Shown here: positions 3,119 through 51,388 of the stretch, in pieces
Layout: each line of letters opens with the position of its first letter
How positions within the stretch are numbered: the first letter of the stretch is position 1
From: a virus
Virus record (IMG/VR): IMGVR_UViG_3300031857_000194
Location: 1-59,478 of that record
DNA: 59,478 nt
Direction: 5' to 3' (one strand)
Notes under the pieces: generated by a model
What the model saw: the letters and a program-made list of their open reading frames with translations, nothing else
The model's database searches: none
Told to the model about the DNA's origin: nothing
Translations under genes and position numbers: made by a program

Positions 3119-4000
3119 TCAACGGTTCCTGTGTTTGGGCTGCCGTTGATAGGATTTGGGATTCTTGTGTGTGCCCGATCCCCGGGCCACCCGTTGTGCG
3201 GCTCGTGCCACGGGATTGCGCGGTGCAGGGGTGGATTTCTTGGGTGCTTCCAGCACACGATAACTTTTCTTCTCTGACCGATCCAACATCTTCATGGCCG
3301 AGTTGATGTCGTTGTCTAGAGCAGCGATTTCCAGTGCGCGGAAGTTGTCCCGGCCAATGTTGGTGCCGGGCGTGACACGCACAAAGTTGTACAAAGTGTC
3401 AATCCACATTTTGGCAGCACGGCTGTTCCTGCCGCCTAGATTCAGCAAGGGTCTGATGGTCTTGGATATGAGATCTGTTAGTGATGTGGCTTGCACATTG
3501 GGGAAAACTTTTTTCAAGCCATCATAGATCTGATCCCCATCGGTGGCTTCATACACTTCTTCTATGTACTCGTCGATCACACGATGATTGGCAGTGTCTT
3601 CGCTGGTCTGCTCTACACCAAAGTTCTTGTCGAATCTCGCGCCCGGTGAAATGGGATTTTTCATCTGTGTGTAGAAAGGTTCTAGATCTGGACCCACTGA
3701 ATCTTCGGGACCTTCGGTGGGTGTGCCTGTGTAGTTCTGTGTGGGGTAATCTCTAGGTTGGTTGAGTAAATCTCTTAATGGACCTTCTTTGTTGTTGTAT
3801 TCTTCCCAGTCGTAGCTGGTGTCTATGCCCTGCAAGGATTCTTCGCTTACCTGCTGTTCGCGGAACTGAGCATTGGGGCCGGCTAGATTGCCTGCTTGCG
3901 GGTTGCCTGCCACATCCACGGGATCAGGATCCATGAGCTGTACCACATCTCGGGGAAGGCTGTGTCCTGCGCGATATTCAAACAAGTCGTTGATGATCAT
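3119..4000 (-). CDS. Hypothetical protein with possible capsid-targeting leader
   Basis: 293 residues. The start MIINDLFEYRAG loosely resembles the leader shared by several genes here (hydrophobic pair then E near residue 8). The middle part carries PQNYTGTPTEGPEDSVGPDLEPFYTQ-like Pro/Gly/acidic stretches, then a helical region (residues about 130-230, IDEYIEEVYEATDGDQIYDGLKKVFP...), and the tail is very basic (ARNPVARAAQRVARG..., KHRNR), as expected for a protein that contacts DNA. The ATG overlaps the stop of the upstream gene as ATGA. No catalytic motif is visible. Probably a virion or internal head protein; function unknown. Confidence 0.7.
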   Translation of the reverse strand: MIINDLFEYRAGHSLPRDVVQLMDPDPVDVAGNPQAGNLAGPNAQFREQQVSEESLQGIDTSYDWEEYNNKEGPLRDLLNQPRDYPTQNYTGTPTEGPEDSVGPDLEPFYTQMKNPISPGARFDKNFGVEQTSEDTANHRVIDEYIEEVYEATDGDQIYDGLKKVFPNVQATSLTDLISKTIRPLLNLGGRNSRAAKMWIDTLYNFVRVTPGTNIGRDNFRALEIAALDNDINSAMKMLDRSEKKSYRVLEAPKKSTPAPRNPVARAAQRVARGSGTHKNPKSYQRQPKHRNR

Positions 4001-4737: not shown

Positions 4738-5174
4738 GCACGAGCTTTCTTGAGAAAGCTACGCAGCATCCAATTGTGCTTGCCGTGTGCGTCCTGGCGC
4801 TCGGCCAAGAAGTTTAGTATGCCTTCTTGATTTTCTGCCTTTGCACTGGCTATGGCTGTGCCGATCAAGGCCAAGAGTTTTTCATTGTCAGTTTTTAGTT
4901 CTTCAAACATGAGTTCTGCTCTGGGAATCTTAGTTTGATCTTGGATAACACTTAGTTCTTGATAACGCATGAGTGATCCTGGTGCGTAGACATCCAACAC
5001 ACGGATATATTCGGCTGCGAGATCAGTGGATTCAAAAACTTCTGTGGCTAGTTTATCAAAGAACTTGTGATACTGACTAAAGTCAGGACCTTCAACATTC
5101 CAATGGAAGTTCTTGGCCTTGAGGTAAAAAGCAAAACTACTAGCTAGTAGTTGTTTGAGATCGTCGGCTAACAT
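4734..5174 (-). CDS. dps: Dps-family ferritin (DNA-protection protein during starvation)
   Basis: 146 residues starting MLADDLKQLLASSFAFYLKA. The Dps inter-subunit ferroxidase ligands are all present at the canonical spacing: H24 (KNFHWNV), H36 (QYHKFFD), D51 and E55 (STDLAAEY), i.e. gaps of 12, 15 and 4 residues as in bacterial Dps. Length is close to the family norm and the protein is one four-helix domain. Dps proteins form 12-mers that oxidise and store iron, limit peroxide damage and often coat DNA; there is a lysine-rich C-terminus (RSFLKKARA) but no long basic N-tail. The ATG chosen overlaps the stop of the upstream leader-bearing gene; longer in-frame starts would run deep into that gene. 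Presence in a virion-protein cluster suggests a late or packaged role rather than a scattered metabolic gene. Confidence 0.9.
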   Translation of the reverse strand: MLADDLKQLLASSFAFYLKAKNFHWNVEGPDFSQYHKFFDKLATEVFESTDLAAEYIRVLDVYAPGSLMRYQELSVIQDQTKIPRAELMFEELKTDNEKLLALIGTAIASAKAENQEGILNFLAERQDAHGKHNWMLRSFLKKARA

Positions 5175-5587
5175 TTGGTATCTTTCTTGGATTCTTGCAT
5201 GGGCTGTATGCCCTGTTCGTGCTGGCTCAGTATGTAGTCCCAAACTGACACCAGATTCATTTTTGCTCCGGCGATTTTTTCCTGCACCCATTCTGGCAAG
5301 TTTTCACCGTCGGCTATGGCATCGTGCAGCCCTTTGACTGCTCTCAGCATGGTATGCAAGTTGCTCTTGGCCATGCCTGACTCGTCGTCATACTCGCCAT
5401 CGTAGTTTTCTTTGATGTTGCGTGGGGTCTTCCGGGCTTTTTTGGGTCTGCTGTTGGCATACTCACGTTTTTCGCCGTAGACGCCTTGACCTATGGGGCC
5501 GCGGCGCTGTGTAGCGCCCAGGGGCATGGCAACTGTGGCAATACCGCCTGCAACGGTGGATTCTTGTATGATTTCTTGTAGTCGCAT
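5168..5587 (-). CDS. Hypothetical protein with capsid-targeting-like leader (MRLQEIIQE|S)
   Basis: 139 residues. The first residues MRLQEIIQES match the leader shared by several genes of the window and resemble the T4 capsid-targeting sequence, with predicted cleavage after E9. The body has a basic segment (SRPKKARKTPRNIKENYDG) and then a helical domain (SNLHTMLRAVKGLHDAIADG, LPEWVQEKIAGAKMNLVSVW). The latter type of short domain (WVQxKIxxAxxxxxxVxDY) is common in T4-like phages, function unknown. A CATAAATA late box (5596-5603) ends 8 bp before the ATG. The stop overlaps the dps start. Confidence 0.72.
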   Translation of the reverse strand: MRLQEIIQESTVAGGIATVAMPLGATQRRGPIGQGVYGEKREYANSRPKKARKTPRNIKENYDGEYDDESGMAKSNLHTMLRAVKGLHDAIADGENLPEWVQEKIAGAKMNLVSVWDYILSQHEQGIQPMQESKKDTKC

Positions 5588-14105: not shown

Positions 14106-14312
14106 TTATTTGTTTTTGTTTCGCCCAGACTTCATGTTAGCGCACCAGTGATACATTTTAGCACGTTCCCCTGATGATTTTTTAGCACGTTGACGCAGAT
14201 CTGTGACCGAGCCAGAGCATGATGCACCTGCACGTTTGACACGCCCTGGTCTGCTGCGGCCCTTGATCTTGCCATCAGCAAAGTTTTCTGTGATGAATTC
14301 ATGTGCTCTCAT
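14106..14312 (-). CDS. Small basic Cys protein with capsid-targeting-like leader (MRAHEFITE|N)
   Basis: 68 residues. After the leader MRAHEFITEN the body is highly basic (KIKGRSRPGRVKRAGASCSG) with C42-type and C-terminal YHWCANMKSG motifs. This GRSRPGRVKRAGASC...MYHWCANM module recurs in T4-like phages of aquatic bacteria with unknown function; the size, charge and leader suit a DNA-binding internal head protein. ATG overlaps the stop of the GNAT-like gene as ATGA. Confidence 0.75.
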   Translation of the reverse strand: MRAHEFITENFADGKIKGRSRPGRVKRAGASCSGSVTDLRQRAKKSSGERAKMYHWCANMKSGRNKNK

Positions 14313-15417: not shown

Positions 15418-17835
15418 TCAATCCAACTGACTGGCCAATTGCTGATACAAAGCCAGTTTTTTATCGGCGCTCATGGCCATCCAACGCTGCATCCAATCAC
15501 TCGTGGGTCTTGTGCCCAAGGCATCTTTGATCAGGTCGCTGATGCTCTGATCCATTTCTTGTTCAGTGGGTCCAGAGGCTTCTGTCACGCTTTGTAATTG
15601 TTGTTGTGTGGCTCGAAGGTTGGGATTATTAGGGTTGGCTGTGTGCCGAACACCGGTGGCAGTACGTTGTGTAGTTCCCCCTGTTGAACTGGCAGTATTG
15701 GGCCCAGTGAGATTTTTTACCATACTGCCAAATCGGCTGGAATCCATTCCGGCCTGTGGCAATGCTGCAGATTTCGATGCCACTTGAGCAGGTGCAGTTC
15801 CAGCCTGTGGCGGTGCTGTAGTTCTCTGTGCTGTGGGAGCAGGTGCAGTTCTCGGTGCAGGTAGTTGCATTTGTTTCCAAACACCGGCCAAGACATTTTT
15901 GTCCACACCTTGCTTGACCAACAAAGCAAAAATCTGATCGCTGTCAGTGGGCGAACCTGCGGCTTTCCATGCTGTTGACAGTTTGTCAGCAGTGATCTTG
16001 GTGGTGATGTTTTGACCCACTTGCGCCACTTTGCCAGCGATGGCTTGACCGGCCTGTGAGGCCTTGCCTTTTAGATAATCCCATACTCCTTCTTCCACAC
16101 GCTGGAACATTTCCCGTATCTGTTGTGGAGTGATGGACTCCGCGGTGGTTTGTGGCCGGCTTGCAACACCAGAACCCGCTGCAGCTCCTTGGCTCAGTGA
16201 TTGCCCGGCCTGCGCCAATCCGTTGATCCATTGTGTTAACCCATCATTGGCGATTTGGTCCGCTCTGGCGTTGCGTGCTATGTCTAAAATCGCAGATCTG
16301 TAATCTGCGGAGTTAATTTCTCTAGAGATAGTTCTCAGTGTGTCATAGCCTCCGGCTTGCCCATCTCTAATCATGCGGAGAGCTTCCTCTATCGCGGATT
16401 TTTCTTCCGGAAACACTATTACATTGAATCCCTTCAGAGTCTGTTTCCATTCGGAACCGGGTCCGGTCAGAGTTTTGGTAGCATGGAATGACACGTCTTC
16501 TAGCCCGGCATCTTTAGGACCAAATGGTATTGAATCTGCTCGCATACCTGACACAAACTGGCCCAGCATCTCAAATGCTTTGCCTGATAGATAGCCCAGT
16601 GCTGCTGTCTTAACGCCCTTGCCCACAGCAGTGGAAAGCTTTTCACCTTTGAGCAATTCAGCGGTGCCACGCAGGATCTGGCCAGCGATGGCGCCTCCAG
16701 CAGGACCAGCACCCAAGGCAGCGATGGTAGTGAGCACACCCACGATGGCTGCTGTCTTGCCAGGATTGGCCTTTGCCCACTCGCCCAACTGCGACACACT
16801 ACGACCCAGTTGAGGAAACTTCTGTGCGATGTTGCCTTTGAGATTTTCAAACTTTTGGTCAAAGGCCTGTACAGGAGCAGTATTTTGTAACCATTTTCCT
16901 ACATTGTCGATTGCTCGGTTTACAGCACCGGCGGCATCCATGCCTTTGCCCACCAAGGTACGGTTGCCACCAGCGTCTGTGGCTGCTTGTTGTGTGGCTG
17001 TAAACAGTTGATTGATCTGTTGTGGATTCAAAGCCACTTCCAGCACAGGCCGGAACTCGTTGTAGATGCCTTCGACGATGCGTCGTTGTTGGACCGTGAG
17101 TCCTTGGCAGGATTCTGTAAGGATCTTGTGGCGGGGTTGTGCAATTTCTGTGACTTTCATCTTGATAATTTTACTTTCCGTTACGCCCATCTGGCGCGGC
17201 CCCACTGTGCCCAGTTTTCGGCCACCGAGGGCCATGACAGACTCGCGCCCGGAGTAATTCATGGTGTGGACCACATTGAAACCTGAGTCGGGCATGGCCC
17301 AGACCTCGATACCGTCTTCGGGGTCTCGAAAGATTTTGACTTTTTCTTTAGCATACTGCACAGCTTCTTGTTTGGTTTTGAACTGACTGGTAAACTTAGC
17401 TTCCGTGACACCTTGCGACATTTTTTGTTTAAGTGTTTGTATCTTTTGTTGATAAAATTTGCATTTCTCGTCGTCACCCGCACGATTGGCTGCTAAAGCA
17501 AGTTCTTCAAACTTTGATATTTTCTTTCTAATATCAGAGGAGCCTTCTGACAGATCATCGTCGTCAAATGGCAAGTACCAGAACCAGTTTTCAAATCCGC
17601 CAGGATTGGTATCATAGTCCATGTGTGCGGCGTTGCGAGCAGCATTCAACATATTTTTGAATATTGCCACAGCGTTATTTTCCACTGCCACTGCTTTCAA
17701 CGCTTGATACAGTTGTTCAGCACCAGCAGCATCTTTGTGTCGTTGGATCTTGGGAGCCAGTCGGTGATACACATCAGCAAATTCGCTGTGTAGTTCTCCC
17801 ATGCGGCTTTCGACTAATATTTCTGTGACTTTCAT
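15418..17835 (-). CDS. 805-residue modular protein with leader and internal protease-like sites
   Basis: The N-terminus MKVTEILVESRM is leader-like. Near residue 226 a second leader-like start appears (KMKVTEIAQPRHKILTES), so the gene looks like two fused leader-proteins. Sites of the type hydrophobic-x-E|A/S/G occur at about 145 (GVTE|A), 220 (VTE|S), 241 (LTE|S), 255 (IVE|G), 582 (VEE|G) and 752 (VTE|A), spaced between domains as if cut by a prohead protease. Residues 360-430 are hydrophobic and Gly/Ala-rich (two membrane-like helices); 615-660 holds a helical KITADKLSTAWKAAGSPTDS module; 660-750 is a Pro/Ala/Thr linker. No enzyme motif. A membrane-active, injected internal protein is a plausible inference. 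Confidence 0.72.
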   Translation of the reverse strand: MKVTEILVESRMGELHSEFADVYHRLAPKIQRHKDAAGAEQLYQALKAVAVENNAVAIFKNMLNAARNAAHMDYDTNPGGFENWFWYLPFDDDDLSEGSSDIRKKISKFEELALAANRAGDDEKCKFYQQKIQTLKQKMSQGVTEAKFTSQFKTKQEAVQYAKEKVKIFRDPEDGIEVWAMPDSGFNVVHTMNYSGRESVMALGGRKLGTVGPRQMGVTESKIIKMKVTEIAQPRHKILTESCQGLTVQQRRIVEGIYNEFRPVLEVALNPQQINQLFTATQQAATDAGGNRTLVGKGMDAAGAVNRAIDNVGKWLQNTAPVQAFDQKFENLKGNIAQKFPQLGRSVSQLGEWAKANPGKTAAIVGVLTTIAALGAGPAGGAIAGQILRGTAELLKGEKLSTAVGKGVKTAALGYLSGKAFEMLGQFVSGMRADSIPFGPKDAGLEDVSFHATKTLTGPGSEWKQTLKGFNVIVFPEEKSAIEEALRMIRDGQAGGYDTLRTISREINSADYRSAILDIARNARADQIANDGLTQWINGLAQAGQSLSQGAAAGSGVASRPQTTAESITPQQIREMFQRVEEGVWDYLKGKASQAGQAIAGKVAQVGQNITTKITADKLSTAWKAAGSPTDSDQIFALLVKQGVDKNVLAGVWKQMQLPAPRTAPAPTAQRTTAPPQAGTAPAQVASKSAALPQAGMDSSRFGSMVKNLTGPNTASSTGGTTQRTATGVRHTANPNNPNLRATQQQLQSVTEASGPTEQEMDQSISDLIKDALGTRPTSDWMQRWMAMSADKKLALYQQLASQLD

Positions 17836-18461: not shown

Positions 18462-21400
18462 TTATCTCATCTCCGGTACGACTTCTAATTCTACACCTAC
18501 TAGATCCGGTCTGTTGCGCCCCATCCATCCGGCGGCGAATCTATTGGCGTCGGTCTGGCTGTTGCCTATGCCACCAAATGTATGCACCACTTCATTGGTG
18601 TTGGCATTGCGTATCTGCCACCGACCAGTGAACTCGCCTTGTGATCGTTGTGCTGCATACTGGGCGATCAATCGGTCTGCTTGTTGATTTACATTAGGCT
18701 GGGCCTGCACGGGTTCGGCTTCGATGCTGGTGATCCTGCGGCGCTGTGCTTGCAGTGCTGAACGCACCGAATCCATGGCAGCATCAGCATTAGGGGCATC
18801 AACACTGAGGCTGTCTGTGACTTGTTCACCATTGCGAGTTTCACTCCAACTCACGCGATAGCGTTGTGTGTCCGCCGCTCTCAAGCGTGTTTGTAAATCC
18901 TGCTGATCCTGCCGATTATCTTTTTGCTGTTGCTGATACTGTCGCACTTCTGCGGCTGAGGCTGGTTCGGCTAGGAAACTGTCGGGATCATTTCGGCGGA
19001 GTTCGAGCCAATGTTTGTCCTGCCGTTCAGCTTCGGCCTTGGCCAGTGCAGTATTTTCAGCGGCCACCAGCAAGGTCCGACCGCTGTCTGTGTCAGTGAT
19101 GCGCCAGATGGTGGGACGATCCACGATCTTTTTTGCCACCTGTGCTCTACGGCTCAGTGGCTTTTCAGGTTCCACTTCGGATTTCTCCCGCGTGGTGAAA
19201 TCAAATCCTTGTCCGCTATATTTGACCAAGGCAGTTTCGTTGGCCGAGTCCAGGTTGTAATCTTTTATGACATCAATGACTTCACCAGTGTCAGTGTTGA
19301 TCACTTCGTATTCTTTAGCAGCCGCAAGGCTGCGCGGGGGTGGCACTTCCTTGGCCAGAACCTGCCGAGCCCACGACTTCTTTAGTTCTTCGGGTGTGAT
19401 CATACCTGCGCTGTATCGGGCAAACAATTCTAGTGCATCCTTGGCACCTTCTGTTTCAACATCGGCTTTGATTTTGGCGCCTTTGTCGGATCGGGAGTAC
19501 TGGGTTTCACGGTATCCGCTCAACAGTTTGTACAGTTTCTTGCCATACTCTTGGCGCTCCAGTTCGGGTCTGCTGGCTATGTACATGGCTCTAGCAAAAC
19601 GCAGCATGGTATCTTCCAGTGCGCCCACTTCTTCGTCGCCTTTGGCCAGATAATCGCCGCCCGGTGAGCGAAACTCGATGTAGCCATCTTTGATATGTGC
19701 CGAAGTGTATTTGTCACGGCCCACCCCATCTCTCACCATGTCGGCAGCCAACTCTATGAGATTCTTTTTCATGAGATCCATGGCAGCGGCTGTTTTCTCT
19801 GCGCCAGACATTTTTGCTGGCGAACTATCCCAGCCTGTGACTTCCTGCTCCTGCATTTGATTTCTACGGCTGCGCTGCACATCCTGCAGTTTGCCCAGAG
19901 CCGAACGTGCGTAACTGTTGGCTGAACGTCCAAAACGTTCCAGCACATACTGATCACCCAGGAACATTATGAGTTTGACATAGTCCACTGCGCCACCCTT
20001 GAAAGGCACGCTCACGCCCATGTGTAAACCAGTTGACGAGTTGGTGTAGGCATCGCCGTCGCTGTTGGCCCAGTCTATAACAGTCTGCAGAGATTCCAGC
20101 GCCTGCTTGAGTGGCATGGGTGGTGATACCACTTCCAGTCCTGTTTCGTCGCTGGGATCGTCGGGATCTAGGCTGCCATCAGGCTCGATGATCCAAAGCC
20201 CGGGCTTTCTTGACACGCTGTGATAGCCCGTGCTGCCACGCACTTGTGCATCACCGCCCAGGGCTTGGCGTAAACTGTCAGCGATGTCGTCCACAGTGCG
20301 ATCGCCACCGCTGGTTTCACCGCCACGCCAGTAGGGCCAGTCTAAACCAAACTCACTGCCAACGTCACTCATGTATCGATATTCTTGTTCCAACCAGTCA
20401 CTTTCATCGTAGTCGCTGCTGTCTCTGGTGGTGTCAAAATAATCGTCTCTGGCTTGATCAAAACGATCATCTTCGGTATCCACACTGGTTTCCACATCTG
20501 CCCGATACAGTTCTCTGGCCAGGGCTTCAATCTTTTCTGATTGTTCCTCGGACTCTTCACTGGTGTCTATGCCCAGTTCTTCCGCAGCACGCTCTCTGTA
20601 GTTGTCCTGCTCCTCGGGCCATACATTCTCATCATAGTAGTCACGCACGATCTGATCTGCGTTTTGGTTCCAGCCTTCGGCGATCTGTTCATCTCGCCAT
20701 TCGTAGAAAGATTCCCGCATTTCTTGCTGCAATCTATTAGCAGACGATCTGCCGATGCCGTTGTCGCCGCCTTGGAAAAAATCCACCACCCCATCTATGC
20801 TGTAGGCACGCTCGTCCATGTCATAGTCAGCTTCGTAGTCTTCTTCCTCGCCTTCGCCGGCATCACGGAAGATGAGTTCGGCTTCAAAGCCTGCTTGTAT
20901 GCCCTCGGCTTCGTCGGAATCGGCCCACTTCTTGAGTTCACCTGGGCTCATCTTGACTTCCAAGAGATCTTCACTGTCCTGTGATTCTGCTGTGATGCCA
21001 CGTGCCCAATCGTCGGGTGTGACGCCGTATTTGGCCACCCACTGATCGTGCAACTTTTGAGGTGTGATATCATATCGTCGGGATATGGTTTGCATGACGT
21101 GATCTATGTTGTCATAGTTGGGATTTTCCAACTGTTTCACACCTTTGGCCAGATCATCCAGGTACTTTTCACGCTGATAACTTTCTGCTATGTCTGTGAA
21201 TATTTTGTCGTGCTGTCGACCGTAATCAACCATGACACGTCCGGCCACGGTGTTGGCATCGGCTTCCACTCTAGCCAACTCTTGGCTGTTCATGTCGTGA
21301 TGCGCTGTGCCATCAATAAACTGTTTCACGTGCTGCAGTTCATGTGTGTAGGTACGCAACACATCTGCTAGATATCTGTCGCCAACGTAAACATAAACTT

Positions 21401-22676
21401 CACTGTCATCGGCTGTGTTCTTCCACTGCGTGACACCAAATGTGTTGTGATCTCGGGCCCAGGATCTATCGCTGGTAAAGGTGACTGGTGGTACTTGTTC
21501 GGGCTTCAGCGCCAATGATCTTAATATATCGGGTATGGCACGATTGATCTCCGAACTCAACCGGCTGTCCACGCCACGGAATGTGACACGGCCTTCGGTC
21601 AATTTACCGTTGGTTTTAGCCTTAGGAGGCACGCCAGCACGAGAGATTTTGAATCCCAACTGCTGAGCTGCTTTTTTCAAACTGTCGGGTCGGACGTCTA
21701 CTGTGAGTGCGTTGCTGAATCTGGGATCATTTCGTTCTGCTTGGGAAGGAATATAACCCGAAGCTGCTTCCTTCAAAGGCTCGTCCCCGAATCCCCAACG
21801 AAACTCCGTCATGATTTCCATGCCTGTCACACGCTTGATCAAATCCCATACGTCTCTTTGCTGGCCTTGCTTGATCAGTTGGCCCAGCAACTTTTTCTGC
21901 TCGGCAGTGGCCTTGCGATAAAACTCGTTCAGTTCCATGATGCCAATATTGCCGGCATAGGCAGCTTCTTCTATGCTGAGTTCTTCGCTCTTGGCCTGAT
22001 CACGTGCCTGCATCAATTGTCGGATCAATCCACGATTGCGCAGTAGTTTGAACACTAGATTTTCTGCAGAAAATTCCCCGGCACGATCTAGACCGGCCTT
22101 TCTCATGCGTTTGATTTTGTCCAGCAGCAGGGACAATCGATCATATTCAGGATTTTTCACAGCCTGTTCTATGGCGTGGCCCAGTTTTTTGTATTTGGAC
22201 TGCACTGTGTTGTCGTCTATGGGCACTCGCTGCCGGCGTGGCATTTTCTGCCACTGATCACGAGAAAGGGAATAGACACCAGCACTGTGATGCTGATCAG
22301 CTGCGCCCTGCACATACAATTCCACATCAGAATCTTTTACCTTGATATTATATCGATCATTGTACAGGCTTTTTTTGGCGTCAAACAATTCACGATACAC
22401 TTCGTCGTTGTCCAATCGCTTCATGTCAATGATCAGGTGCAGATCAATGTCGGAATAGGGTGTGTAGGTATAGCCTGCGTTGCTGCCACTGACGGTGATG
22501 TCATCTATCTGTGAGGAATTTAATCCAAGATATTCTCTAAAATCATCGGCTATGCGCAGCAGGGCTCGGCGCACATCGGGTTTGAGTTGATCCCCGTCAA
22601 ACAATTGGGGATTGAGATCTTGATGCAGCTGCACAGCATCCTTGAGACTGTACTGTTCTAATTCCGTGATATCCAT
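18462..22676 (-). CDS. 1404-residue multi-enzyme protein: nucleotidyltransferase, HExxH metalloprotease, amidoligase-like
   Basis: Domain 1 (about 45-125): a polymerase-beta-type nucleotidyltransferase with the GS...SDIDLHL signature (residues 63-81, metal aspartates D76 and D78). Domain 2 (about 370-500): a zinc metalloprotease with HELQH at 445-449 and a downstream ELARVEADANT helix likely to give the third ligand. Domain 3 (about 575-1060): amidoligase-like, GCS/glutamine-synthetase fold, with AGFEAELIF near 595-603, GLEVVSPPMP near 847, TGLHMGVSV near 882 and later EFRSPGGDYL. The C-terminus has several short repeats of the WRIxNxxTxE type ending RPDLVGVELEVVPEMR. Acidic linker 605-770. 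It lies among leader-bearing proteins; a CTAAATA late box is at 22684-22690. Substrates are unknown. Confidence 0.78.
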   Translation of the reverse strand: MDITELEQYSLKDAVQLHQDLNPQLFDGDQLKPDVRRALLRIADDFREYLGLNSSQIDDITVSGSNAGYTYTPYSDIDLHLIIDMKRLDNDEVYRELFDAKKSLYNDRYNIKVKDSDVELYVQGAADQHHSAGVYSLSRDQWQKMPRRQRVPIDDNTVQSKYKKLGHAIEQAVKNPEYDRLSLLLDKIKRMRKAGLDRAGEFSAENLVFKLLRNRGLIRQLMQARDQAKSEELSIEEAAYAGNIGIMELNEFYRKATAEQKKLLGQLIKQGQQRDVWDLIKRVTGMEIMTEFRWGFGDEPLKEAASGYIPSQAERNDPRFSNALTVDVRPDSLKKAAQQLGFKISRAGVPPKAKTNGKLTEGRVTFRGVDSRLSSEINRAIPDILRSLALKPEQVPPVTFTSDRSWARDHNTFGVTQWKNTADDSEVYVYVGDRYLADVLRTYTHELQHVKQFIDGTAHHDMNSQELARVEADANTVAGRVMVDYGRQHDKIFTDIAESYQREKYLDDLAKGVKQLENPNYDNIDHVMQTISRRYDITPQKLHDQWVAKYGVTPDDWARGITAESQDSEDLLEVKMSPGELKKWADSDEAEGIQAGFEAELIFRDAGEGEEEDYEADYDMDERAYSIDGVVDFFQGGDNGIGRSSANRLQQEMRESFYEWRDEQIAEGWNQNADQIVRDYYDENVWPEEQDNYRERAAEELGIDTSEESEEQSEKIEALARELYRADVETSVDTEDDRFDQARDDYFDTTRDSSDYDESDWLEQEYRYMSDVGSEFGLDWPYWRGGETSGGDRTVDDIADSLRQALGGDAQVRGSTGYHSVSRKPGLWIIEPDGSLDPDDPSDETGLEVVSPPMPLKQALESLQTVIDWANSDGDAYTNSSTGLHMGVSVPFKGGAVDYVKLIMFLGDQYVLERFGRSANSYARSALGKLQDVQRSRRNQMQEQEVTGWDSSPAKMSGAEKTAAAMDLMKKNLIELAADMVRDGVGRDKYTSAHIKDGYIEFRSPGGDYLAKGDEEVGALEDTMLRFARAMYIASRPELERQEYGKKLYKLLSGYRETQYSRSDKGAKIKADVETEGAKDALELFARYSAGMITPEELKKSWARQVLAKEVPPPRSLAAAKEYEVINTDTGEVIDVIKDYNLDSANETALVKYSGQGFDFTTREKSEVEPEKPLSRRAQVAKKIVDRPTIWRITDTDSGRTLLVAAENTALAKAEAERQDKHWLELRRNDPDSFLAEPASAAEVRQYQQQQKDNRQDQQDLQTRLRAADTQRYRVSWSETRNGEQVTDSLSVDAPNADAAMDSVRSALQAQRRRITSIEAEPVQAQPNVNQQADRLIAQYAAQRSQGEFTGRWQIRNANTNEVVHTFGGIGNSQTDANRFAAGWMGRNRPDLVGVELEVVPEMR

Positions 22677-22771: not shown

Positions 22772-23635
22772 TTATGCTGCCACAGCTGTTTGTGGCTGTC
22801 CGGCTTTTTTGTTCTGTTCCACGATAGCGTGCATTTCTTGATAAATGCGATCTTGGCTCATGAAATCAAACACAAATGTTCCGGTATGGCGCAGTAGCAC
22901 ACGCTTGTCTACCCAGACTTCACCGCCTAGATCACGCCAGTTTTCGCAGAAAGTCCAGTCCTCGCTATAATAGCGATTTTCACGCACAGCCGTGTCAAAA
23001 TATGTTTTCATATATTGATTTAATTCTGCTGGCAGTCCAATGTCATTGTTGAATGATTTCACAGCAGGATGGCTGTTCATCTTTTCAAATACATGGCGTT
23101 TGATCAACAAAAATCCTGTGCCAGTTTTTGATACTTCCTGCAGGCCATCTGGTGCTTCTTTTGCTCCGGGGAATCCGTTGACCACCCATTTTACTGGCAG
23201 TGTTTTCATGGGATATAATCCACCGATCACGTCTTTGTCGTGATTCAACATGGCCAGGATATGCCAAGGCTCAAAACCAATGTCGGCATCGATAAACATC
23301 AGGTGTGTTGAATCTGCTGTGTTCAAAAACTTGGCTACCAAGGTGTTGCGAGCACGGCTGATCAAGGACTCGTTGGTCATGGTTTCCATGGTCCAATCCA
23401 GGCCCAACTGGCGTGCTGTATTGCTCCATTTGATATAACTCATAAAATTCTGTTCAAACAATTGACCACCATAGCAGGGCATACAAAAATGGATTTTTTG
23501 TTTGCGGCAGTAGTCGATGTTGACCTGGATCTGACCTTGTTGGGGTTGCTGTTGATCGGCAGCAGGTGCTGGTGCAGCCTGGGCTGCTTCTGTCAGCGCC
23601 TTGGCCATTGCTTCTTTTTTATCTTTTTTTGCCAT
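22772..23635 (-). CDS. GT-A fold glycosyltransferase (family 2-like)
   Basis: 287 residues from ATG at 23635; a GAGGA ribosome site lies 5 nt upstream, which decides against the in-frame TTG four codons earlier. After a charged, Ala/Gln/Pro-rich N-tail (about 1-42) the GT-A core begins KIHFCMPCYGGQLFEQNF, with RARNTLVAKFL (nucleotide-binding helix) and LMFIDADIGF containing the DxD metal motif. Later GTGFLLIKRHVF and YSEDWTFCENWRDLGGEVWV fit acceptor and catalytic-base segments. T4-like phages use such enzymes on modified DNA bases, on virion proteins or on host surface glycans; none can be chosen here. A strong terminator follows the gene. Confidence 0.85.
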   Translation of the reverse strand: MAKKDKKEAMAKALTEAAQAAPAPAADQQQPQQGQIQVNIDYCRKQKIHFCMPCYGGQLFEQNFMSYIKWSNTARQLGLDWTMETMTNESLISRARNTLVAKFLNTADSTHLMFIDADIGFEPWHILAMLNHDKDVIGGLYPMKTLPVKWVVNGFPGAKEAPDGLQEVSKTGTGFLLIKRHVFEKMNSHPAVKSFNNDIGLPAELNQYMKTYFDTAVRENRYYSEDWTFCENWRDLGGEVWVDKRVLLRHTGTFVFDFMSQDRIYQEMHAIVEQNKKAGQPQTAVAA

Positions 23636-24325: not shown

Positions 24326-24970
24326 TTATTTATTGTTCACACCCATGGCCGCAGCCACGGTTTCAAAATAATCCCGACCTGCCACTCGGAGATTGGGATC
24401 TACCCCAGTGGCACGGAAAAATCCTTCGCGATCGCCTGCAGTGACCATGGCACGAACATCGGTACTGCGTAGATTGGGATCACCCGCAATGCCCTCAGCA
24501 TCCTGTGCTTCAGGCGTGCCACCATCTGAGAATGAGTCAAAATTGTAAACTGCCCGTAATGGCTGGCCTTTGGTATTCACCTGCTTGCCATTTGTCACCA
24601 TTGGAAAACGCATGGCTTCTTCGCCGGCGCCGTACATGACCACAGCATTCTTGTAGCCTTTTTTATTCAAATATTCGGCAGCAAAATCACTCATGGGTAC
24701 AGCAGGATCCATGACAAAATGATCACGATCCTGTGGCAATATTGCCCGCCACCAGGCCAATTTTTCAGCACCTGTCAAAGGATTTTTTTCAGGATCACTA
24801 TCGCGAGGACTAATAAACAGATACCAGTCAGCATTCAATTCACCGGCCTTTCTTTTCAAGGCATTGATCAGTCGCTGATGTCCAGCATTGGGCGGATTAA
24901 ATCTACCAAATGCGTATACCACTGTGTCTTTGTTGCCACGTGTGTTTTCAAACAATTCAAATAATAACAT
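24326..24970 (-). CDS. HxGH-superfamily nucleotidyltransferase (cytidylyl-/NMN adenylyl-transferase-like)
   Basis: 214 residues. The N-terminal Rossmann-type core has GRFNPPNAGH at 22-31, the (T/H)xGH signature of nucleotidyl- (alpha-phosphodiesterase) transferases, followed by LINALKRKAG. Near residue 165-175 a STDVRAMV segment corresponds to the ISSTxIR motif that binds the triphosphate. The first nine residues MLLFELFEN resemble the capsid-targeting-like leader. It overlaps by one base the upstream KxDG-motif gene, and the two-gene arrangement is one I associate with T4-like phages. Substrate unknown: NMN, glycerol phosphate or a sugar phosphate are all possible. Confidence 0.82.
   Translation of the reverse strand: MLLFELFENTRGNKDTVVYAFGRFNPPNAGHQRLINALKRKAGELNADWYLFISPRDSDPEKNPLTGAEKLAWWRAILPQDRDHFVMDPAVPMSDFAAEYLNKKGYKNAVVMYGAGEEAMRFPMVTNGKQVNTKGQPLRAVYNFDSFSDGGTPEAQDAEGIAGDPNLRSTDVRAMVTAGDREGFFRATGVDPNLRVAGRDYFETVAAAMGVNNK
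24327..24334 (-). promoter_or_regulatory. Late-like box AATAAATA
   Basis: Five bases before the start of the RMF-like gene at 24321. Confidence 0.42.
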
Positions 24971-26136
24971 TATCTAGGTTGCCAATCGCTGCGTTTGATA
25001 TATTTAACAAATTGTCCAGGAATGGCATATTGGTAACCACCAGGATCGGGCTGGGCAAATCCTTCGGGGTTGTCCTGGCGTATGATGCTGTGTTGCTGTA
25101 TGCCTGTTAGCCACTGATCCAGCACTGAATCTTTGATTTTTTGCAGTTGTTCCACAGCACCCAGTGTGGCTGTGAGTCCTGCTGAATCGCTGAGCATGAC
25201 GTCGGCTTGTTTGGCGCTGAGATTTTGTTTGGCCCAGACCGGAAATGACTGGGTCAAATCAGCGAATTTGGTGGCACGCTGATCACCCATGAACTTGTAA
25301 ATCACTGAACCAGGACTTTTAAGGCCCGGTTTGGGCGATAGATAATTGTCCAACACTGTGCGATTTTTTAGTATGCTCTGCTCAAGTGCAGCCAGAGCAC
25401 GATCCATTTCAGGATCCAGCACAGGCACAGTTTCCACATACAGCGGCCCTTGCACTATCAGGCCAGGTGTGTGATTCATGGCGTCGATTTGATCTGTGCT
25501 GAGTCGCTGTTCATCTGTGCTGCCCAGTTCGGGATAGTATCCTGTAATGGCCACACCAGCAGTGGCATTTTCTATACGCTCACCCAGTCTGCTGTCCTGG
25601 CGCACATAAAATCTCGTGACGTTGGGCTGGAATGTGTATTCACCACGGGCAGCAATGGCAGGTTTCTCAGGATAGAACAACAATCCACCTTCCACAAATC
25701 CACGGAAATCGCTGGGAGTAGCACGCTCAAATACCGAATACAATTGGCTCATGCCTTGTGCATATTGATTGCGCTGTGCTTGTTGTTCTGGGGTATCCGC
25801 ACGACCTGTGCCGGCAATAAACTTTTTTACTGCTGACGCACTGGACATTTCGGTACTGACACCGTCAGCGGTTTTATTTTTGCCACGCTGCTGATACATC
25901 CAGGCATTTTTGGGAAAGAAATAAAATTTGCCCTCATCGTCTCTGCCCCAAAAGAACACCGGAGATCCATCCCACTTCACTTCCACCTGCTGATATTCTG
26001 TGGGCAGTCTGCGCAGTCGTTCTATGGCGTGCAAGGCACCTTGGCTGCCGTTGGTATACACAAGGTCTTCCAAGTGTTGATATTTGCGACCTATGTCTGG
26101 CATGGCCGCTTCTACAAGGAACTGGCGGCTCAGCAT
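24970..26136 (-). CDS. KxDG-motif nucleotidyltransferase/ligase-fold protein with leader (MLSRQFLVE|A)
   Basis: 388 residues from ATG at 26136, 2 bp after the upstream stop; the open frame extends 23 codons further but into that gene. The leader MLSRQFLVEA fits the packaged-protein family. Residues 51-60 contain VEVKWDGSP, the KxDG motif I of covalent nucleotidyltransferases (DNA/RNA ligases, capping enzymes). FRGFVEGGLLFY (about 144-155) could be motif IV (EG), and VIYKFMGD further on could supply motif V lysine. It resembles a phage family of unknown function (DUF6267-like, from memory). Reaction not established; nicked RNA/DNA or a nucleotide-modified protein are options. Confidence 0.72.
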   Translation of the reverse strand: MLSRQFLVEAAMPDIGRKYQHLEDLVYTNGSQGALHAIERLRRLPTEYQQVEVKWDGSPVFFWGRDDEGKFYFFPKNAWMYQQRGKNKTADGVSTEMSSASAVKKFIAGTGRADTPEQQAQRNQYAQGMSQLYSVFERATPSDFRGFVEGGLLFYPEKPAIAARGEYTFQPNVTRFYVRQDSRLGERIENATAGVAITGYYPELGSTDEQRLSTDQIDAMNHTPGLIVQGPLYVETVPVLDPEMDRALAALEQSILKNRTVLDNYLSPKPGLKSPGSVIYKFMGDQRATKFADLTQSFPVWAKQNLSAKQADVMLSDSAGLTATLGAVEQLQKIKDSVLDQWLTGIQQHSIIRQDNPEGFAQPDPGGYQYAIPGQFVKYIKRSDWQPR

Positions 26137-39980: not shown

Positions 39981-42086
39981 CTATTGCGTGGGGAAGGCCG
40001 TGGTAGGCGGTGTGAAGTTGGTGGTGTACCGGGCGAAGCGGGTAATACGAACATCATCGAAATATCCATTTACAACAAGTGGTGTAGTAGATATTTGACC
40101 AGCTCCAATCACAACTGGTTCGGTTGTTGTCGTGATTGATGATTGAGTTGCAGTTGTGCCTATCTGCGTTCCATTTACAAAAATTCTTAAATTTCCAGAT
40201 GCACATGACACGGCAACATGTATCCACGCCCCTGTTGACAAGGTATATGTAGCATCGCGCACAACAGAGCCATTAGCCGCCCATCTAAAATTACCAGTGT
40301 TTCTCCATTGAAGTATCCATTCAGTCCCGGAATTCCATTTGCTTATCAGGTTCTGGTCTGCGGTTGTATTCGGATACCACCAAAACTCAATAGTAAAGTC
40401 TCCGGACCCAAAGTTATAAAACGCATTATTTGGTACAACTAGCCAATCGCCAGTGCCATCAAATGCCATGGAGGATCCACCAAACTTGCTTTGTGCAGTA
40501 CTGATGGCAGCACCACCCACGGTCTCCAGCACATTCTTGGCGGCAGCGTCAATGATACCACCATTGGTATAGTTGAGTAGCAGTTGAGTGTTGGCAATGG
40601 CGGTTAAGGGTGCGGTAGGTACAGTAATAGATGTTGCAGAAGCATCATAAACAGCCGTGCCTTTTACCACACGAAGGTCTTGTAAATAACCGTATAAAAG
40701 GTCTGTAATGGTATATCTGCTTCCAATAGTAGCCGTAGCGCCAGTAGAACTATAATTTGTAGTGTCGGTTTGTGTTGCTGTTCTAGTTCCATTTAAAAAT
40801 AAAGACCCAGTATTGGTGCTGCTATTTCTAACATAAACAACATGATTCCACGCATTTAAAGTTAATGCTGAACCCTCCAAAGTTGCAGAACCATTGTACC
40901 AGCCTAATAAATTAGCCGCCGCCCCGCTTCCGTTTAATCTACATCCAAGTACCCAAGTAGATGTAACAGATGCCGTCCTAGCATCATAAATATAGGCTGC
41001 TGCTACTCCTGACGGCGCTGAAAAAGGATAATACCAAGCCTCTACTGTAAATGACCCTGTACCAAATTGATTAGAGGTTGACGGAGAATACGTCAAATAA
41101 TCCCCACTACCATCAAAGTATCCCGAGCCGCCCACGGTGCCGGCAGCATAGGCAGTGGTAGGATCAAAGGGCGAGAATGCCTGTACGGAGGGAGTGTTAA
41201 GAGGTGTTATGGCAAGCGCATTGGTAGAATTATCAATATAACGATTGCTTTGGCAAGTCAGTAATGATGTACCAGACACTGCAGTCAGTGGCTGTGTTGG
41301 TGGTGTAAACGATGCTGAATATACAGCCGATCCTTTGACTACTCTAAAGTTGGAGATGTATCCATTGAAATCTCCAATATATGTATAGACATTGTACAGA
41401 TAAGCGCCCAAGCCTATGTACAATTGATAGTCGGTTGTGGAAGCGGGCCACGCACCCGATAGAGTGGGATTAGTAAAAGTAGATGTTATATCAGTTCCGT
41501 TGACAAAGAAATAGTTTGATCCGCTGATTCTGGACCACGCGATGTGTGTCCACGTGTTGAGAGGTATGATCGTACTGCTGGTGTTATCAGTATTAGATCC
41601 TCCATAGTCTCTAATTATTGATAACGCTCCGGTGTTTACAATGGACATACCATAATACTTGCTACCAGCTGGGAATGCAGCACCGTAAAAACTAAACAAG
41701 AAAGCAGAATTAAAGTAAGGAGCTCCTGCGGCGGGATACTGTGTTAGATATACCCAACATTCTACAGTTCCGCCGTTGACCATGTCAAACAATGTGCTGT
41801 TAGGAGTGGTCAGCCCTTTCATAGTAGATGTACTTGACCCTGCACTGTTGACAAACACGCTCCACCCGGTCTGGCTGAATGGTGAGAATGTGCCCTGCGT
41901 GGTGTTGCCGTTCCTTGTGACGGTGAAATTGTTGGTGCTTGAATCCAAGAAGGTGTTGTTTTGTGCACCATTGGTGCCGTTACCAGGTAGTAGCAATGAT
42001 ACCAAGTTGAAATAACTATCTGGTTCTACTGTAGCAGCAGATGAATACAATTTCAATCCGCGTATTTTTGTGCCTTGTATTTTCAT
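39981..42086 (-). CDS. LamG-domain adhesin, three modules (701 residues)
   Basis: Start MKIQGTKIRGLKLYSSAATV followed by the DSYFNLVSLLLPGNGTNGAQ opening. Three LamG modules, the first marked by TVECWVYLTQYP, the second by GSGYFDGSGDYLTY and the third by MAFDGTGDWLVVP; the end RYTTNFTPPTTAFPTQ equals that of the neighbouring adhesin. Shorter paralogue made by module loss or gain. Separated by 11 bp from the downstream LamG gene. Confidence 0.87.
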   Translation of the reverse strand: MKIQGTKIRGLKLYSSAATVEPDSYFNLVSLLLPGNGTNGAQNNTFLDSSTNNFTVTRNGNTTQGTFSPFSQTGWSVFVNSAGSSTSTMKGLTTPNSTLFDMVNGGTVECWVYLTQYPAAGAPYFNSAFLFSFYGAAFPAGSKYYGMSIVNTGALSIIRDYGGSNTDNTSSTIIPLNTWTHIAWSRISGSNYFFVNGTDITSTFTNPTLSGAWPASTTDYQLYIGLGAYLYNVYTYIGDFNGYISNFRVVKGSAVYSASFTPPTQPLTAVSGTSLLTCQSNRYIDNSTNALAITPLNTPSVQAFSPFDPTTAYAAGTVGGSGYFDGSGDYLTYSPSTSNQFGTGSFTVEAWYYPFSAPSGVAAAYIYDARTASVTSTWVLGCRLNGSGAAANLLGWYNGSATLEGSALTLNAWNHVVYVRNSSTNTGSLFLNGTRTATQTDTTNYSSTGATATIGSRYTITDLLYGYLQDLRVVKGTAVYDASATSITVPTAPLTAIANTQLLLNYTNGGIIDAAAKNVLETVGGAAISTAQSKFGGSSMAFDGTGDWLVVPNNAFYNFGSGDFTIEFWWYPNTTADQNLISKWNSGTEWILQWRNTGNFRWAANGSVVRDATYTLSTGAWIHVAVSCASGNLRIFVNGTQIGTTATQSSITTTTEPVVIGAGQISTTPLVVNGYFDDVRITRFARYTTNFTPPTTAFPTQ

Positions 42087-44434: not shown

Positions 44435-44925
44435 TGTGGTGCCCGATAGTTGGGATTGGCTATGGCAGGACATTCTTTGTTGATCTCCGCTGAATTCTTG
44501 GCTGCTAATTCTTGCTGGGTATGTGCCGCGCCCGATGCCAGTTCAAGACAGCGCATAGCATTGCGTGTGCCGCGATTCACCAGGCGTTCTACCAGTTCTG
44601 GTCGTTCGCGAGCCAACTGGCCAAAGTCTCGGGGATTGCCGCGTGCGTCCTGGCTGAATTTTTTTGTCAGCGTGTCCACTTCACCGCGATAGCGTTCTGC
44701 TAGATTCTGCAGATCACGATTGGTCTGCTGAATGGCTGCAATGTCTTCAACCATCTGCCGTAACAAATCTTTTTGTTCTTGGATGCCTTGTTCTAGCCTA
44801 CGTGCGTTTTCTTGACTTTGCACCAAGTCGGCCTTGACGTTGGACACATACCAAAGTCCTGCGGCTATGATAACAGCAATGATCAGTGCGACTATGGATC
44901 GGATTATGGCGCCGACGGGCAGCAT
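44431..44925 (-). CDS. Probable inner-membrane spanin (Rz-like)
   Basis: 164 residues: an N-terminal membrane helix (IVALIIAVIIAAGLWYV, about 11-28), then a long periplasmic coiled coil (NARRLEQGIQEQKDLLRQMV ... NRDLQNLAERYRGEVDTL), and a C-terminal domain with two Cys (MRCLELASGA, NKECPAIAN). This is the Rz i-spanin layout, paired with the downstream lipoprotein and upstream of the endolysin cluster. Confidence 0.76.
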   Translation of the reverse strand: MLPVGAIIRSIVALIIAVIIAAGLWYVSNVKADLVQSQENARRLEQGIQEQKDLLRQMVEDIAAIQQTNRDLQNLAERYRGEVDTLTKKFSQDARGNPRDFGQLARERPELVERLVNRGTRNAMRCLELASGAAHTQQELAAKNSAEINKECPAIANPNYRAPQ

Positions 44926-45209
44926 CAGGGCCTCTCGTAACTGGCTTGGGCACGTGACATGGCTGTGCGAGCAGCATCTGCTTGCTCACGGCCTTGTGCT
45001 TCGGCATCCCGTGTGCTGCCTCCGGGTTCTCCTGCGATGTTTTTGATGCGTTCTATTTTGGCTGGCTCTTCGCCGTAGGTATCAATAAAATATTGACCTA
45101 GGCCTTCGTCGTACTGCCAGTCAATGACTTTGACTGTGCCGTCTCGCATGGTCACACGATATCTAGCAGGTCTAAACATACCTTCCGAGATGATCTCGTA
45201 GAGTTTCAT
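44925..45209 (-). CDS. Small protein with capsid-targeting-like leader (MKLYEIISE|G)
   Basis: 94 residues. Leader MKLYEIISEG with predicted cleavage after E9. The body MFRPARYRVTMRDGTVKVIDW ... YGEEPAKIERIKNI is a short beta/alpha domain, then a helix rich in Ala/Arg/Gln (AEAQGREQADAARTAMSRAQ). Flanked by spanin and endolysin genes with one-base and ATGA overlaps. Function unknown; possibly packaged. Confidence 0.7.
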   Translation of the reverse strand: MKLYEIISEGMFRPARYRVTMRDGTVKVIDWQYDEGLGQYFIDTYGEEPAKIERIKNIAGEPGGSTRDAEAQGREQADAARTAMSRAQASYERP

Positions 45210-47877: not shown

Positions 47878-47909
47878 AGCCCGTTATACCCTAATGGGCT
47901 TTTTATTTT
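47878..47909 (+). terminator. Terminator after phoH and the minigene
   Basis: AGCCC/GGGCT stem (47878-47882, 47896-47900) followed by TTTTATTTT. It faces the 3' end of the convergent Cys-cluster gene. The 50 bases before it contain another small hairpin (GATCTGTGAGATC) and no gene. Confidence 0.72.
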
Positions 47910-48310
47910 GTGATGGGACCGCCTTCTACCCAGGCATCGCAGGTGCGTTTGGCAGCACATTTGAATTTCAAGAATTTGCAGTAGCCTAGATCGCCAGCAT
48001 CGATGGTATCGTGGGGATCGCTGCCAGGTTCCGAACCAATGCCCTGGGCTATGCAGTCCAACATATCTGGCGATATGTCAAAGGCAGCACAGTTGCCGCA
48101 ACGATTCTGTTTGACAGATTTGATATCATCTGTGTTCCATTTGTCGGCCAGCTCCTGCCAGTATTCGTCATTGGGCTCATTGGGATTCAATGGACCATAG
48201 TGATACTCGTCTATGGCCTTTTGTCTGTTGCGGAGATTTAGACCAATGTCTTGTGTAGCCGGTGGACAGCCCTTTTCAATGGCTTCGATTATGTTGATGT
48301 AGTTTCTCAT
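47903..48310 (-). CDS. Cys-cluster protein with leader-like start
   Basis: 135 residues. The leader-like start MRNYINIIEAIEKG is followed by a helical part with LNLRNRQKAIDEYHYGPLNP. Residues about 68-130 carry RCGNCAAFDISPDMLDCIAQ ... DLGYCKFLKFKCAAKRTCDA, seven Cys in all, a probable metal or iron-sulfur binding module known from T4-like aquatic phages. Function unknown. Confidence 0.74.
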   Translation of the reverse strand: MRNYINIIEAIEKGCPPATQDIGLNLRNRQKAIDEYHYGPLNPNEPNDEYWQELADKWNTDDIKSVKQNRCGNCAAFDISPDMLDCIAQGIGSEPGSDPHDTIDAGDLGYCKFLKFKCAAKRTCDAWVEGGPITK

Positions 48311-49248: not shown

Positions 49249-49409
49249 TTGTTTTTCTTTCCACCAGTGCCCCAGTTGGCAGCACCTTTTTTGCGACACT
49301 GTACCAAGGCACCTGATGCATAGGCCGAAGGCCATACCTTGTAACGGCTGCGCACTTTATTGTAGCAGGCGTCTTTTTTGGCTTCCGATACAAATTCATG
49401 AGCACGCAT
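49245..49409 (-). CDS. Small leader-bearing Cys protein (54 residues)
   Basis: Reads MRAHEFVSEAKKDACYNKVR then SRYKVWPSAYASGALVQCRK and ends WGTGGKKNK. The leader MRAHEFVSE|A is nearly identical to that of the gene at 14106-14312. The WPSAYASGALVQCRK module is common in large phages. A ribosome site AGGAGC is upstream, and TAATG and ATGA overlaps link it to both neighbours. Confidence 0.75.
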   Translation of the reverse strand: MRAHEFVSEAKKDACYNKVRSRYKVWPSAYASGALVQCRKKGAANWGTGGKKNK

Positions 49410-50917: not shown

Positions 50918-51388
50918 TTATTGTTTGATGGTATTTTGTTGTGCTTCGGCCACACGTTTGCGCAGGCTGGAACTGCTAAATGAATGGTCTCGTTTGTTGA
51001 ACACCAATTCGATGCCACGCTCGATGCAGATCTTGCGACCAGTAAAGTCTTTGTCTTCGTACTCCACACCCAAGATCCTGACATCTATGGGCAGGGTCAG
51101 CAATATATCTTCCAGATCTTTTTCTGTTTGATACACCACTATTTCATCCACGAACCTAGTGGCAGATAGTTGTATCTGTCGTTCTACTATGCTTTGCACT
51201 GGTGGATTCTTGCTGTCGGGTCTATCGATGGTGGGATCGGTTTGCAGTCCTGCTATGAGATAGTCGCAGTGATTTTTGGCTTCGGCCAGCATGGCTATGT
51301 GTCCAGCGTGCAAGAGATCAAAGGTACTGAATGTTATACCTATCTTCATGCCAGCGTCTTTTAATTCTCTTACTCGGTTGAATATCAT
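50918..51388 (-). CDS. Cytidylyltransferase-family enzyme (TagD/RfaE-like)
   Basis: 156 residues. MKIGITFSTFDLLHAGHIAM gives the HxGH site (27-30) and the alpha-beta core; IVERQIQLSATRFVDEIVVY and HSFSSSSLRKRV supply the triphosphate-binding ISTT-like region. It resembles glycerol-3-phosphate or sugar-1-phosphate cytidylyltransferases of short length. Start overlaps the upstream stop (ATGA); an internal ATG 14 codons downstream could also serve. It likely makes a nucleotide-activated sugar or polyol. Second HxGH enzyme in the window. Confidence 0.88.
   Translation of the reverse strand: MIFNRVRELKDAGMKIGITFSTFDLLHAGHIAMLAEAKNHCDYLIAGLQTDPTIDRPDSKNPPVQSIVERQIQLSATRFVDEIVVYQTEKDLEDILLTLPIDVRILGVEYEDKDFTGRKICIERGIELVFNKRDHSFSSSSLRKRVAEAQQNTIKQ

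What the first reader, a model, noticed from the sequence alone, without database searches (positions are those of the whole stretch)
24326..26136. Adjacent KxDG ligase-fold and HxGH nucleotidyltransferase genes, both with the leader
VEVKWDGSP (motif I of covalent nucleotidyltransferases) and GRFNPPNAGH (nucleotidyl-transfer site) lie in one-base-overlapping genes and both start with the packaging-like leader. Together they could form an injected nucleotide-transfer system: for instance make and attach a nucleotide (NAD-like or CDP-like) to RNA or protein, echoing T4 Alt. The reaction is inference only.
Basis: partly seen in the sequence, partly recalled or inferred. Interest (0 to 1): 0.75.

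Follow-up and report, generated by a model that had tools for sequence, protein, structure and literature searches.

The report
Paired phage ligase-fold and adenylyltransferase-fold enzymes
Two touching phage genes encode a ligase-like enzyme and an adenylyltransferase-like enzyme that travel together, sometimes as one protein, across hundreds of phages and look as if they are carried inside the virus particle, which suggests an injected nucleotide-transfer or RNA-repair kit, although no reaction has been shown.

Summary
On the minus strand, gene A (24970-26136, 388 aa, K54 in VKWDGSP) and gene B (24326-24970, 214 aa, H31 in GRFNPPNAGH) overlap by one base, and both start with a short (L/I/F)xE leader. 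A is a divergent member of PF19782 (DUF6267, no known function). AlphaFold and Foldseek place it, weakly but consistently, in the DNA/RNA ligase (covalent lysyl-nucleotidyltransferase) fold. B has the HIGH nucleotidyltransferase fold, nearest to NMN/NaMN, pantetheine-phosphate and FAD adenylyltransferases. The pairing is real: 57 of 80 B-seeded loci have A just upstream, and S-PM2 carries A and B in one polypeptide. Relatives add a third nucleotidyltransferase, a Pol-beta type, directly before or fused to A (14 loci) or fused to B (23). Both window genes are under strong purifying selection. B homologues have been found in cyanophage virions, which fits packaging, but packaging in this phage is not shown. 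I commit to a virion-borne nucleotidyl-transfer module whose likeliest job is RNA-end repair (A adenylates and joins ends, Pol-beta restores bases, B is an adenylyltransferase partner). The substrate remains inference, and 'T4 Alt-like' is not supported beyond delivery.

The parts
24970..26136 (-). Gene A: 388-aa DUF6267 protein, predicted ligase-fold (covalent lysyl-nucleotidyltransferase)
   Evidence: PF19782 E 3.4e-14; phrog_455; AF2 pLDDT 90; Foldseek top hits are DNA/RNA ligases
26110..26136 (-). N-terminal leader of A, MLSRQFLVE, resembling the T4 gp21 (L/I)xE cleavage site
   Evidence: Sequence; disordered in model; leader enrichment
25966..25977 (-). Motif I KWDG, residues 54-57 (predicted nucleotidylated lysine K54)
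   Evidence: Invariant in 69 homologues
25684..25692 (-). Motif III region EGG, residues 149-151; most relatives have QGD, so the acidic residue is two positions earlier in this clade
   Evidence: Alignment
25057..25065 (-). Motif IV candidate EGF, residues 358-360
   Evidence: E358, G359 invariant in 69 homologues
25003..25005 (-). Motif V candidate lysine K378 (VKYIKR; KLVDR in relatives)
   Evidence: Invariant
24326..24970 (-). Gene B: 214-aa HIGH-superfamily nucleotidyltransferase, phage 'cytidyltransferase' family
   Evidence: phrog_3041 E 3.6e-24, phrog_395; TIGR00125 E 3.3e-5; AF2 pLDDT 91; Foldseek to adenylyltransferases
24947..24970 (-). N-terminal leader of B, MLLFELFE
   Evidence: Sequence; disordered in model
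24878..24889 (-). HxGH-type nucleotidyl-transfer site NAGH, residues 28-31
   Evidence: G30, H31 100% conserved in 80 homologues; sister clade has HKGH
24452..24469 (-). Second HIGH-superfamily signature RSTDVR, residues 168-173 (ISSTxxR type)
   Evidence: R173 100% conserved

Best explanation
A and B are partner subunits of one virion-associated nucleotidyl-transfer module. Predicted course: each is synthesised with a capsid-targeting leader, packed into the prohead, trimmed after (L/I/F)xE and injected with the DNA. A, a ligase-fold enzyme, forms a lysyl-nucleotide at K54 (probably AMP from ATP) and transfers it to a nucleic-acid 5' end, most likely to rejoin RNA cleaved by host defence nucleases. 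In relatives a Pol-beta-type nucleotidyltransferase encoded directly upstream, or fused to A, would restore missing nucleotides. B, a HIGH-type adenylyltransferase, acts in the same pathway on a small nucleotide or an RNA end. Shown here: folds (by prediction), motif conservation, purifying selection, pairing and fusion, leader enrichment. Inferred: packaging in this phage, self-nucleotidylation, RNA as the target, and B's substrate.
For: Ligase fold: top PDB hits for A are tRNA ligase Trl1, ASFV DNA ligase and T. gammatolerans DNA ligase; among viral models, the phage Atu_ph07 RNA ligase at E 9e-4, prob 0.96, and mostly DNA/RNA ligases among the named weaker hits. Motif order is KxDG ... QGD ... 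EG(F/Y) ... K. B fold: PPAT, NadD, NadM and FAD synthetase at E 2.5e-4 to 1e-3. Pairing: 57/80 B-seeded loci have A upstream on the same strand, median gap 515 bp, and 33/81 A-seeded loci have B downstream. Single-chain fusion in S-PM2d138 (A 3-401, B 411-576). Near-identical host spread in public phages: A in 471 records, B in 496. Pol-beta partner: adjacent or fused to A in 14 loci, fused to B in 23; its GS...DxD...D triad is invariant or nearly so; L179 is a compact Pol-beta/A/B row. RNA ligase with a Pol-beta enzyme (RlaP) is a described phage RNA-repair pairing (PMC7824862). Virion detection of B homologues: PMC3037559, PMC10665884, both with (L/I)xE leaders.
Against: No reaction or substrate was tested. 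The PDB matches of A are weak (E about 0.1, TM about 0.2), and a profile comparison with T4 Rnl2 or T7 ligase found nothing; its positive control (Rnl2 against T7 ligase) also failed. This clade lacks the usual motif III aspartate and the 'HTTY' histidine. The Pol-beta family next to A is not RlaP by Pfam, and the A5 profile finds no copy of it in the window or its 169.5-kb relative. No gp21 protease or gp23 was recognised in that relative. A is not always beside B (P-SSM2).
Confidence: 0.4

Rival explanations
1. NAD+ economy: B is an NMN (or NaMN) adenylyltransferase injected to rebuild NAD+ against NAD-depleting defences, and A either uses NAD+ as nucleotide donor or is a separate effector.
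For: Nearest B structures include NadD and NadM; phage HIGH-domain NMN adenylyltransferases that restore NAD+ are described (PMC9503650); the S-CREM2 authors also called B an NMNAT homologue (PMC10665884).
Against: NMNAT equivalog models score far below cut-off; PPAT and FAD synthetase structures match equally well; the ligase-fold and Pol-beta partners are unexplained; NAD+-dependent ligases need a separate NAD+-binding Ia domain (PMC9503650), not seen in A.
Confidence: 0.2
2. Injected protein-modifying effector: A and B label host proteins or RNA polymerase with a nucleotide or dinucleotide.
For: Leader and virion detection of B homologues; Pol-beta nucleotidyltransferases are listed among protein-modifying domains of injected polyvalent proteins (PMC5512222).
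Against: No ADP-ribosyltransferase or Fic-like domain; the A fold is that of nucleic-acid ligases and capping-type enzymes; no target is indicated.
Confidence: 0.18
3. Sugar-nucleotide or surface-polymer synthesis: B makes an NDP-sugar-like donor, used with glycosyltransferases, and A is an unrelated neighbour.
For: HIGH nucleotidyltransferases of cyanophages were proposed to make NDP-sugars (PMC7824862); a weakly glycosyltransferase-like gene lies at 22772-23632 (Anp1 E 1.3e-4, below cut-off).
Against: The conserved partners of B are A and Pol-beta domains, with direct fusion, not sugar genes; in cyanophages the pair lies in the replication/recombination region.
Confidence: 0.1
4. A of this clade is a catalytically dead ligase relative kept as an internal head or scaffold protein.
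For: Motif III Asp to Gly and the 'HTTY' His to Thr in the window clade.
Against: K54, D56, G57, E358 and K378 remain invariant; dN/dS 0.02-0.09; an acidic residue (E149) appears two positions from the lost aspartate, on the same face of the strand if the strand is regular (inference).
Confidence: 0.12

Closest known systems
Pfam PF19782 (DUF6267) / cyanophage T4-GC71
   Same: Gene A is a member by HMM (E 3.4e-14, cut-off passed); KxDG core and overall layout shared
   Different: Unnamed function; window clade diverges at motif III and has an insertion before motif V; no paper in the held library names DUF6267
ATP-dependent RNA/DNA ligases (T4 Rnl2, tRNA ligase Trl1, ASFV ligase)
   Same: Predicted fold; order of motifs I, III, IV, V
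   Different: No Pfam RNA- or DNA-ligase match; about 110-residue helical insert between motifs III and IV; second motif V lysine lacking; ligation untested
Cyanophage 'cytitidyltransferase' T4-GC190 (phrog_395/3041)
   Same: Gene B family; HIGH motifs; (L/I)xE leader; homologues detected in S-SM1 and S-CREM2 virions
   Different: Window B is the bare 214-aa domain without the C-terminal extensions
NMN/NaMN, pantetheine-phosphate and FAD adenylyltransferases (NadD, NadM, CoaD, RibF)
   Same: Fold and both signatures of B
   Different: 14-20% identity; substrate unknown; equivalog cut-offs not met
RlaP Pol-beta plus RNA ligase repair pairs of large phages
   Same: A Pol-beta nucleotidyltransferase adjacent or fused to a ligase-fold protein
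   Different: Different Pol-beta and ligase families; a HIGH enzyme is added; virion leaders; not seen next to A in the window itself
T4 Alt and internal proteins (capsid-targeting sequence)
   Same: Leader style and proposed delivery
   Different: Alt is an ADP-ribosyltransferase; no fold relation

Membership tests
PF19782 DUF6267 (gene A) | HMM score above curated cut-off | tested here: met
   53.4 bits against a cut-off of 27
Covalent nucleotidyltransferase / ligase superfamily (gene A) | Ligase-type fold | tested here: inconclusive
   Ligases lead both fold searches but at weak scores in the PDB (E 0.1) and E 9e-4 for one viral RNA ligase
Covalent nucleotidyltransferase / ligase superfamily (gene A) | Motif I KxxG lysine | tested here: met
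   K54-W-D-G invariant
Covalent nucleotidyltransferase / ligase superfamily (gene A) | Motif III acidic residue | tested here: inconclusive
   QGD in most of the family, EGG in this clade
Covalent nucleotidyltransferase / ligase superfamily (gene A) | Motifs IV (EGxV) and V (lysine) | tested here: met
   E358-G359 and K378 invariant; the second motif V lysine is absent
Covalent nucleotidyltransferase / ligase superfamily (gene A) | Self-nucleotidylation and end joining | not testable with these tools
   Needs biochemistry
T4 Rnl2-type RNA ligase (Pfam RNA_ligase) | Pfam match | tested here: not met
   Only DUF6267 is reported at E<=1
HIGH nucleotidyltransferase superfamily (gene B) | Fold, (H/T/N)xGH and (I)SSTxxR-type signatures | tested here: met
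   Pfam PF01467 alone is below cut-off (18.4 against 21 bits)
NMN adenylyltransferase | Equivalog score cut-off | tested here: not met
   TIGR01526/TIGR01527 16-20 bits against cut-offs of 341/181
NMN adenylyltransferase | NAD+ synthesis | not testable with these tools
   Needs enzyme assay
T4-type capsid-targeted internal protein | N-terminal leader ending in (L/I)xE | tested here: met
   FLVE in A; LFE in B, as in Alt-style leaders
T4-type capsid-targeted internal protein | gp21-type prohead protease in the same phage | tested here: inconclusive
   No Peptidase_S77 hit in the 169.5-kb relative, possibly incomplete or divergent
T4-type capsid-targeted internal protein | Presence in the virion | not testable with these tools
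   Shown in the literature for B homologues only (PMC3037559, PMC10665884)
RlaP (Pol-beta partner in relatives) | Pfam RlaP match | tested here: not met
   No RlaP among matches

The most novel reading that the evidence does not exclude
A virion-delivered machine combining three unrelated nucleotidyltransferase folds (Pol-beta, ligase-type, HIGH) that repairs or caps RNA ends in the first minutes of infection, widespread in marine T4-like phages and never assayed.
Probability: 0.3. Interest if true: 0.8.

Novelty: new variant of a known kind. Interest (0 to 1): 0.55.

Why it matters
DUF6267 and the 'cytitidyltransferase' occur in 471 and 496 public phage records, mostly marine cyanophages, with no assigned function for the first and only a guessed one for the second. 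Showing that they form one module, sometimes one polypeptide, with a recurrent Pol-beta partner turns two separate unknowns into a testable system. If it is an injected RNA-repair or nucleotide-transfer kit, it would be a counter-defence present before any phage gene is expressed.

Tried and rejected
Sequence searches of the PDB with A, B, their profiles and the Pol-beta profile gave nothing significant. hhalign of A against T4 Rnl2 and T7 ligase profiles was uninformative, because the Rnl2-T7 control also failed. I read the EGF at 358-360 as motif IV; an earlier alignment suggested this clade had lost the motif IV glutamate, but EG is invariant in the larger alignment. The P-SSM2 gene annotated 'tRNA ligase' is a class II tRNA synthetase-like protein, not an RNA ligase. 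gp21 (S77), S78 protease and gp23 searches in relatives were negative or sub-threshold; the gp23 and gp21 searches rang in no control genome, so absence is not shown. Hits in bacterial genome contigs are almost all metagenome bins, so the family looks phage-restricted. A cellular origin was not pursued.

Full report
OBSERVATION. The window is a 59,478-base virus record. On the minus strand, gene A runs 26136 to 24970 (388 aa) and gene B 24970 to 24326 (214 aa); the A stop codon and the B start share one base. The quoted motifs are present, at K54 of A and H31 of B. Both genes begin with a short hydrophobic stretch ending in xE (MLSRQFLVE/A, MLLFELFE/N).

REAL GENES. Copies 95-100% identical occur on several independent IMG/VR contigs with the same arrangement. 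Synonymous changes far exceed replacement changes (dN/dS 0.02-0.09), so both proteins are maintained by selection. A 169.5-kb relative is collinear with most of the window. It encodes a DNA polymerase of phrog_262, a clamp loader, and its own ATP-dependent DNA ligase, so A is not the phage's replicative ligase.

GENE A. It matches only DUF6267 in Pfam. The alignment of 69 homologues leaves K54, W55, D56, G57, P59, E358, G359 and K378 invariant. The core is KxDG: P-SSM2 has KIDG in a compact 270-aa form. The AlphaFold model is confident (pLDDT 90) except for the first 16 residues. Foldseek against the PDB lists tRNA ligase Trl1, ASFV DNA ligase and an archaeal DNA ligase first, at weak E-values near 0.1. 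Against viral models, beyond DUF6267 relatives, an RNA ligase of phage Atu_ph07 scores E 9e-4 (prob 0.96), followed by many DNA and RNA ligases. Weak individual scores but a consistent class of hits, together with the motif order, make the ligase-type fold likely. In the window clade the motif III aspartate (QGD) is replaced (EGG) and 'HTTY' has lost its histidine. This could mean altered specificity or loss of activity.

GENE B. It belongs to phage 'cytidyltransferase' families, carries both HIGH-superfamily signatures, and its model (pLDDT 91) matches pantetheine-phosphate, nicotinate/nicotinamide-nucleotide and FAD adenylyltransferases. The label 'cytidyl' is therefore probably misleading. 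The substrate cannot be read from the fold, and NMNAT equivalog cut-offs are not met.

THE PAIR. Starting from B alone, 57 of 80 loci carry A upstream on the same strand; starting from A, 33 of 81 carry B downstream. Many of these contigs are short. In public phages A occurs in 471 records and B in 496, with almost the same host spread. In Kyanoviridae the pair lies near uvsX and gp41. S-PM2 has A and B in one 591-aa protein, and phrog_455 matches both. L082 holds a HIGH-type domain and A in one frame, with an HAD-like stretch (DFDDT) between them by eye.

A THIRD PARTNER. In 14 loci, including the closest sister clade (L024-L028), a Pol-beta-type protein overlaps, directly precedes, or is fused to A; its GS...DxD...D residues are invariant or nearly so, although Pfam does not recognise most members. 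A different Pol-beta domain (PF01909) is fused to B in 23 loci. In the window no such gene flanks A, and the A5 profile finds none. The 1404-aa protein at 18462-22676 has a phrog_36119 N-terminus that also matches the B-linked type.

DELIVERY. (L/I/F)xE leaders are about twice as frequent in A and B homologues as in neighbouring ORFs, with the T4-like preference L or I, then x, then E, then A or S. T4 capsid-targeting sequences behave this way (PMC9026906). B homologues were found by mass spectrometry in S-SM1 (PMC3037559) and S-CREM2 (PMC10665884) virions; both have the leader. The second paper notes possible co-purification. For A no proteomic evidence was found, and no prohead protease was identified in the 169.5-kb relative.

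MECHANISM. The most economical reading is one pathway with ligase-type, adenylyltransferase-type and, in relatives, Pol-beta enzymes. Pol-beta with RNA ligase is a recognised phage RNA-repair pairing (RlaP; PMC7824862), so RNA-end repair is the leading proposal, at about 0.4. NAD+ restoration, protein nucleotidylylation, sugar-nucleotide synthesis and a dead-enzyme structural role remain open. No reaction has been shown.

NOVELTY. Virion carriage of B was already proposed in print. The ligase-type fold for DUF6267, the A-B fusion and the Pol-beta association were not found in the held library, which lacks most subscription journals. I rate this a new variant of a known kind.

Noticed in passing
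window 18462-22676 (-): 1404-aa multidomain protein: Pol-beta-like N-terminus (phrog_36119 E 1e-41; PF01909 E 0.006), an HELQH metallopeptidase-like motif by eye, and an amidoligase domain (PF12224 E 4e-9); looks like an injected polyvalent-type protein.
   Followed up: partly
window 3119-4000, 5168-5587, 14106-14312, 15418-17835, 44925-45209, 47903-48310, 48322-49335 (all -): Further ORFs whose starts carry an (L/I/F)xE leader (e.g. MRAHEFITE, MKVTEILVE, MKLYEIISE), so several proteins of this phage may share the targeting signal.
   Followed up: partly
window 50918-51388 (-): A second HIGH-type nucleotidyltransferase (PF01467 E 1.3e-9, FDLLHAGH), without a leader.
   Followed up: no
L179:3593-6996: Compact three-gene row Pol-beta / A / B with near-touching genes; a good candidate for expressing the whole module.
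   Followed up: partly
L082:3997-7128: Single 1044-aa frame with a HIGH-type domain, an HAD-like stretch (by eye) and DUF6267.
   Followed up: partly
L040:1707-3698 and L044:5962-7956: DUF6267 with an extra C-terminal domain of about 250 aa; the L044 copy matches nothing in Pfam or PHROGs.
   Followed up: partly
window 40446-41135 (within ORF 39981-42086, -): 82% DNA identity over about 690 bases to Phage DSL-LC04 (a lectin/glucanase-type protein gene), the only near match of 20001-45000 in the public phage collection.
   Followed up: no
G001 (L274-L282, 169,524 bases): Relative of the window with a T4-type DNA polymerase family but no recognisable gp23 or gp21; may be a distant T4-like lineage or an incomplete record.
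   Followed up: partly
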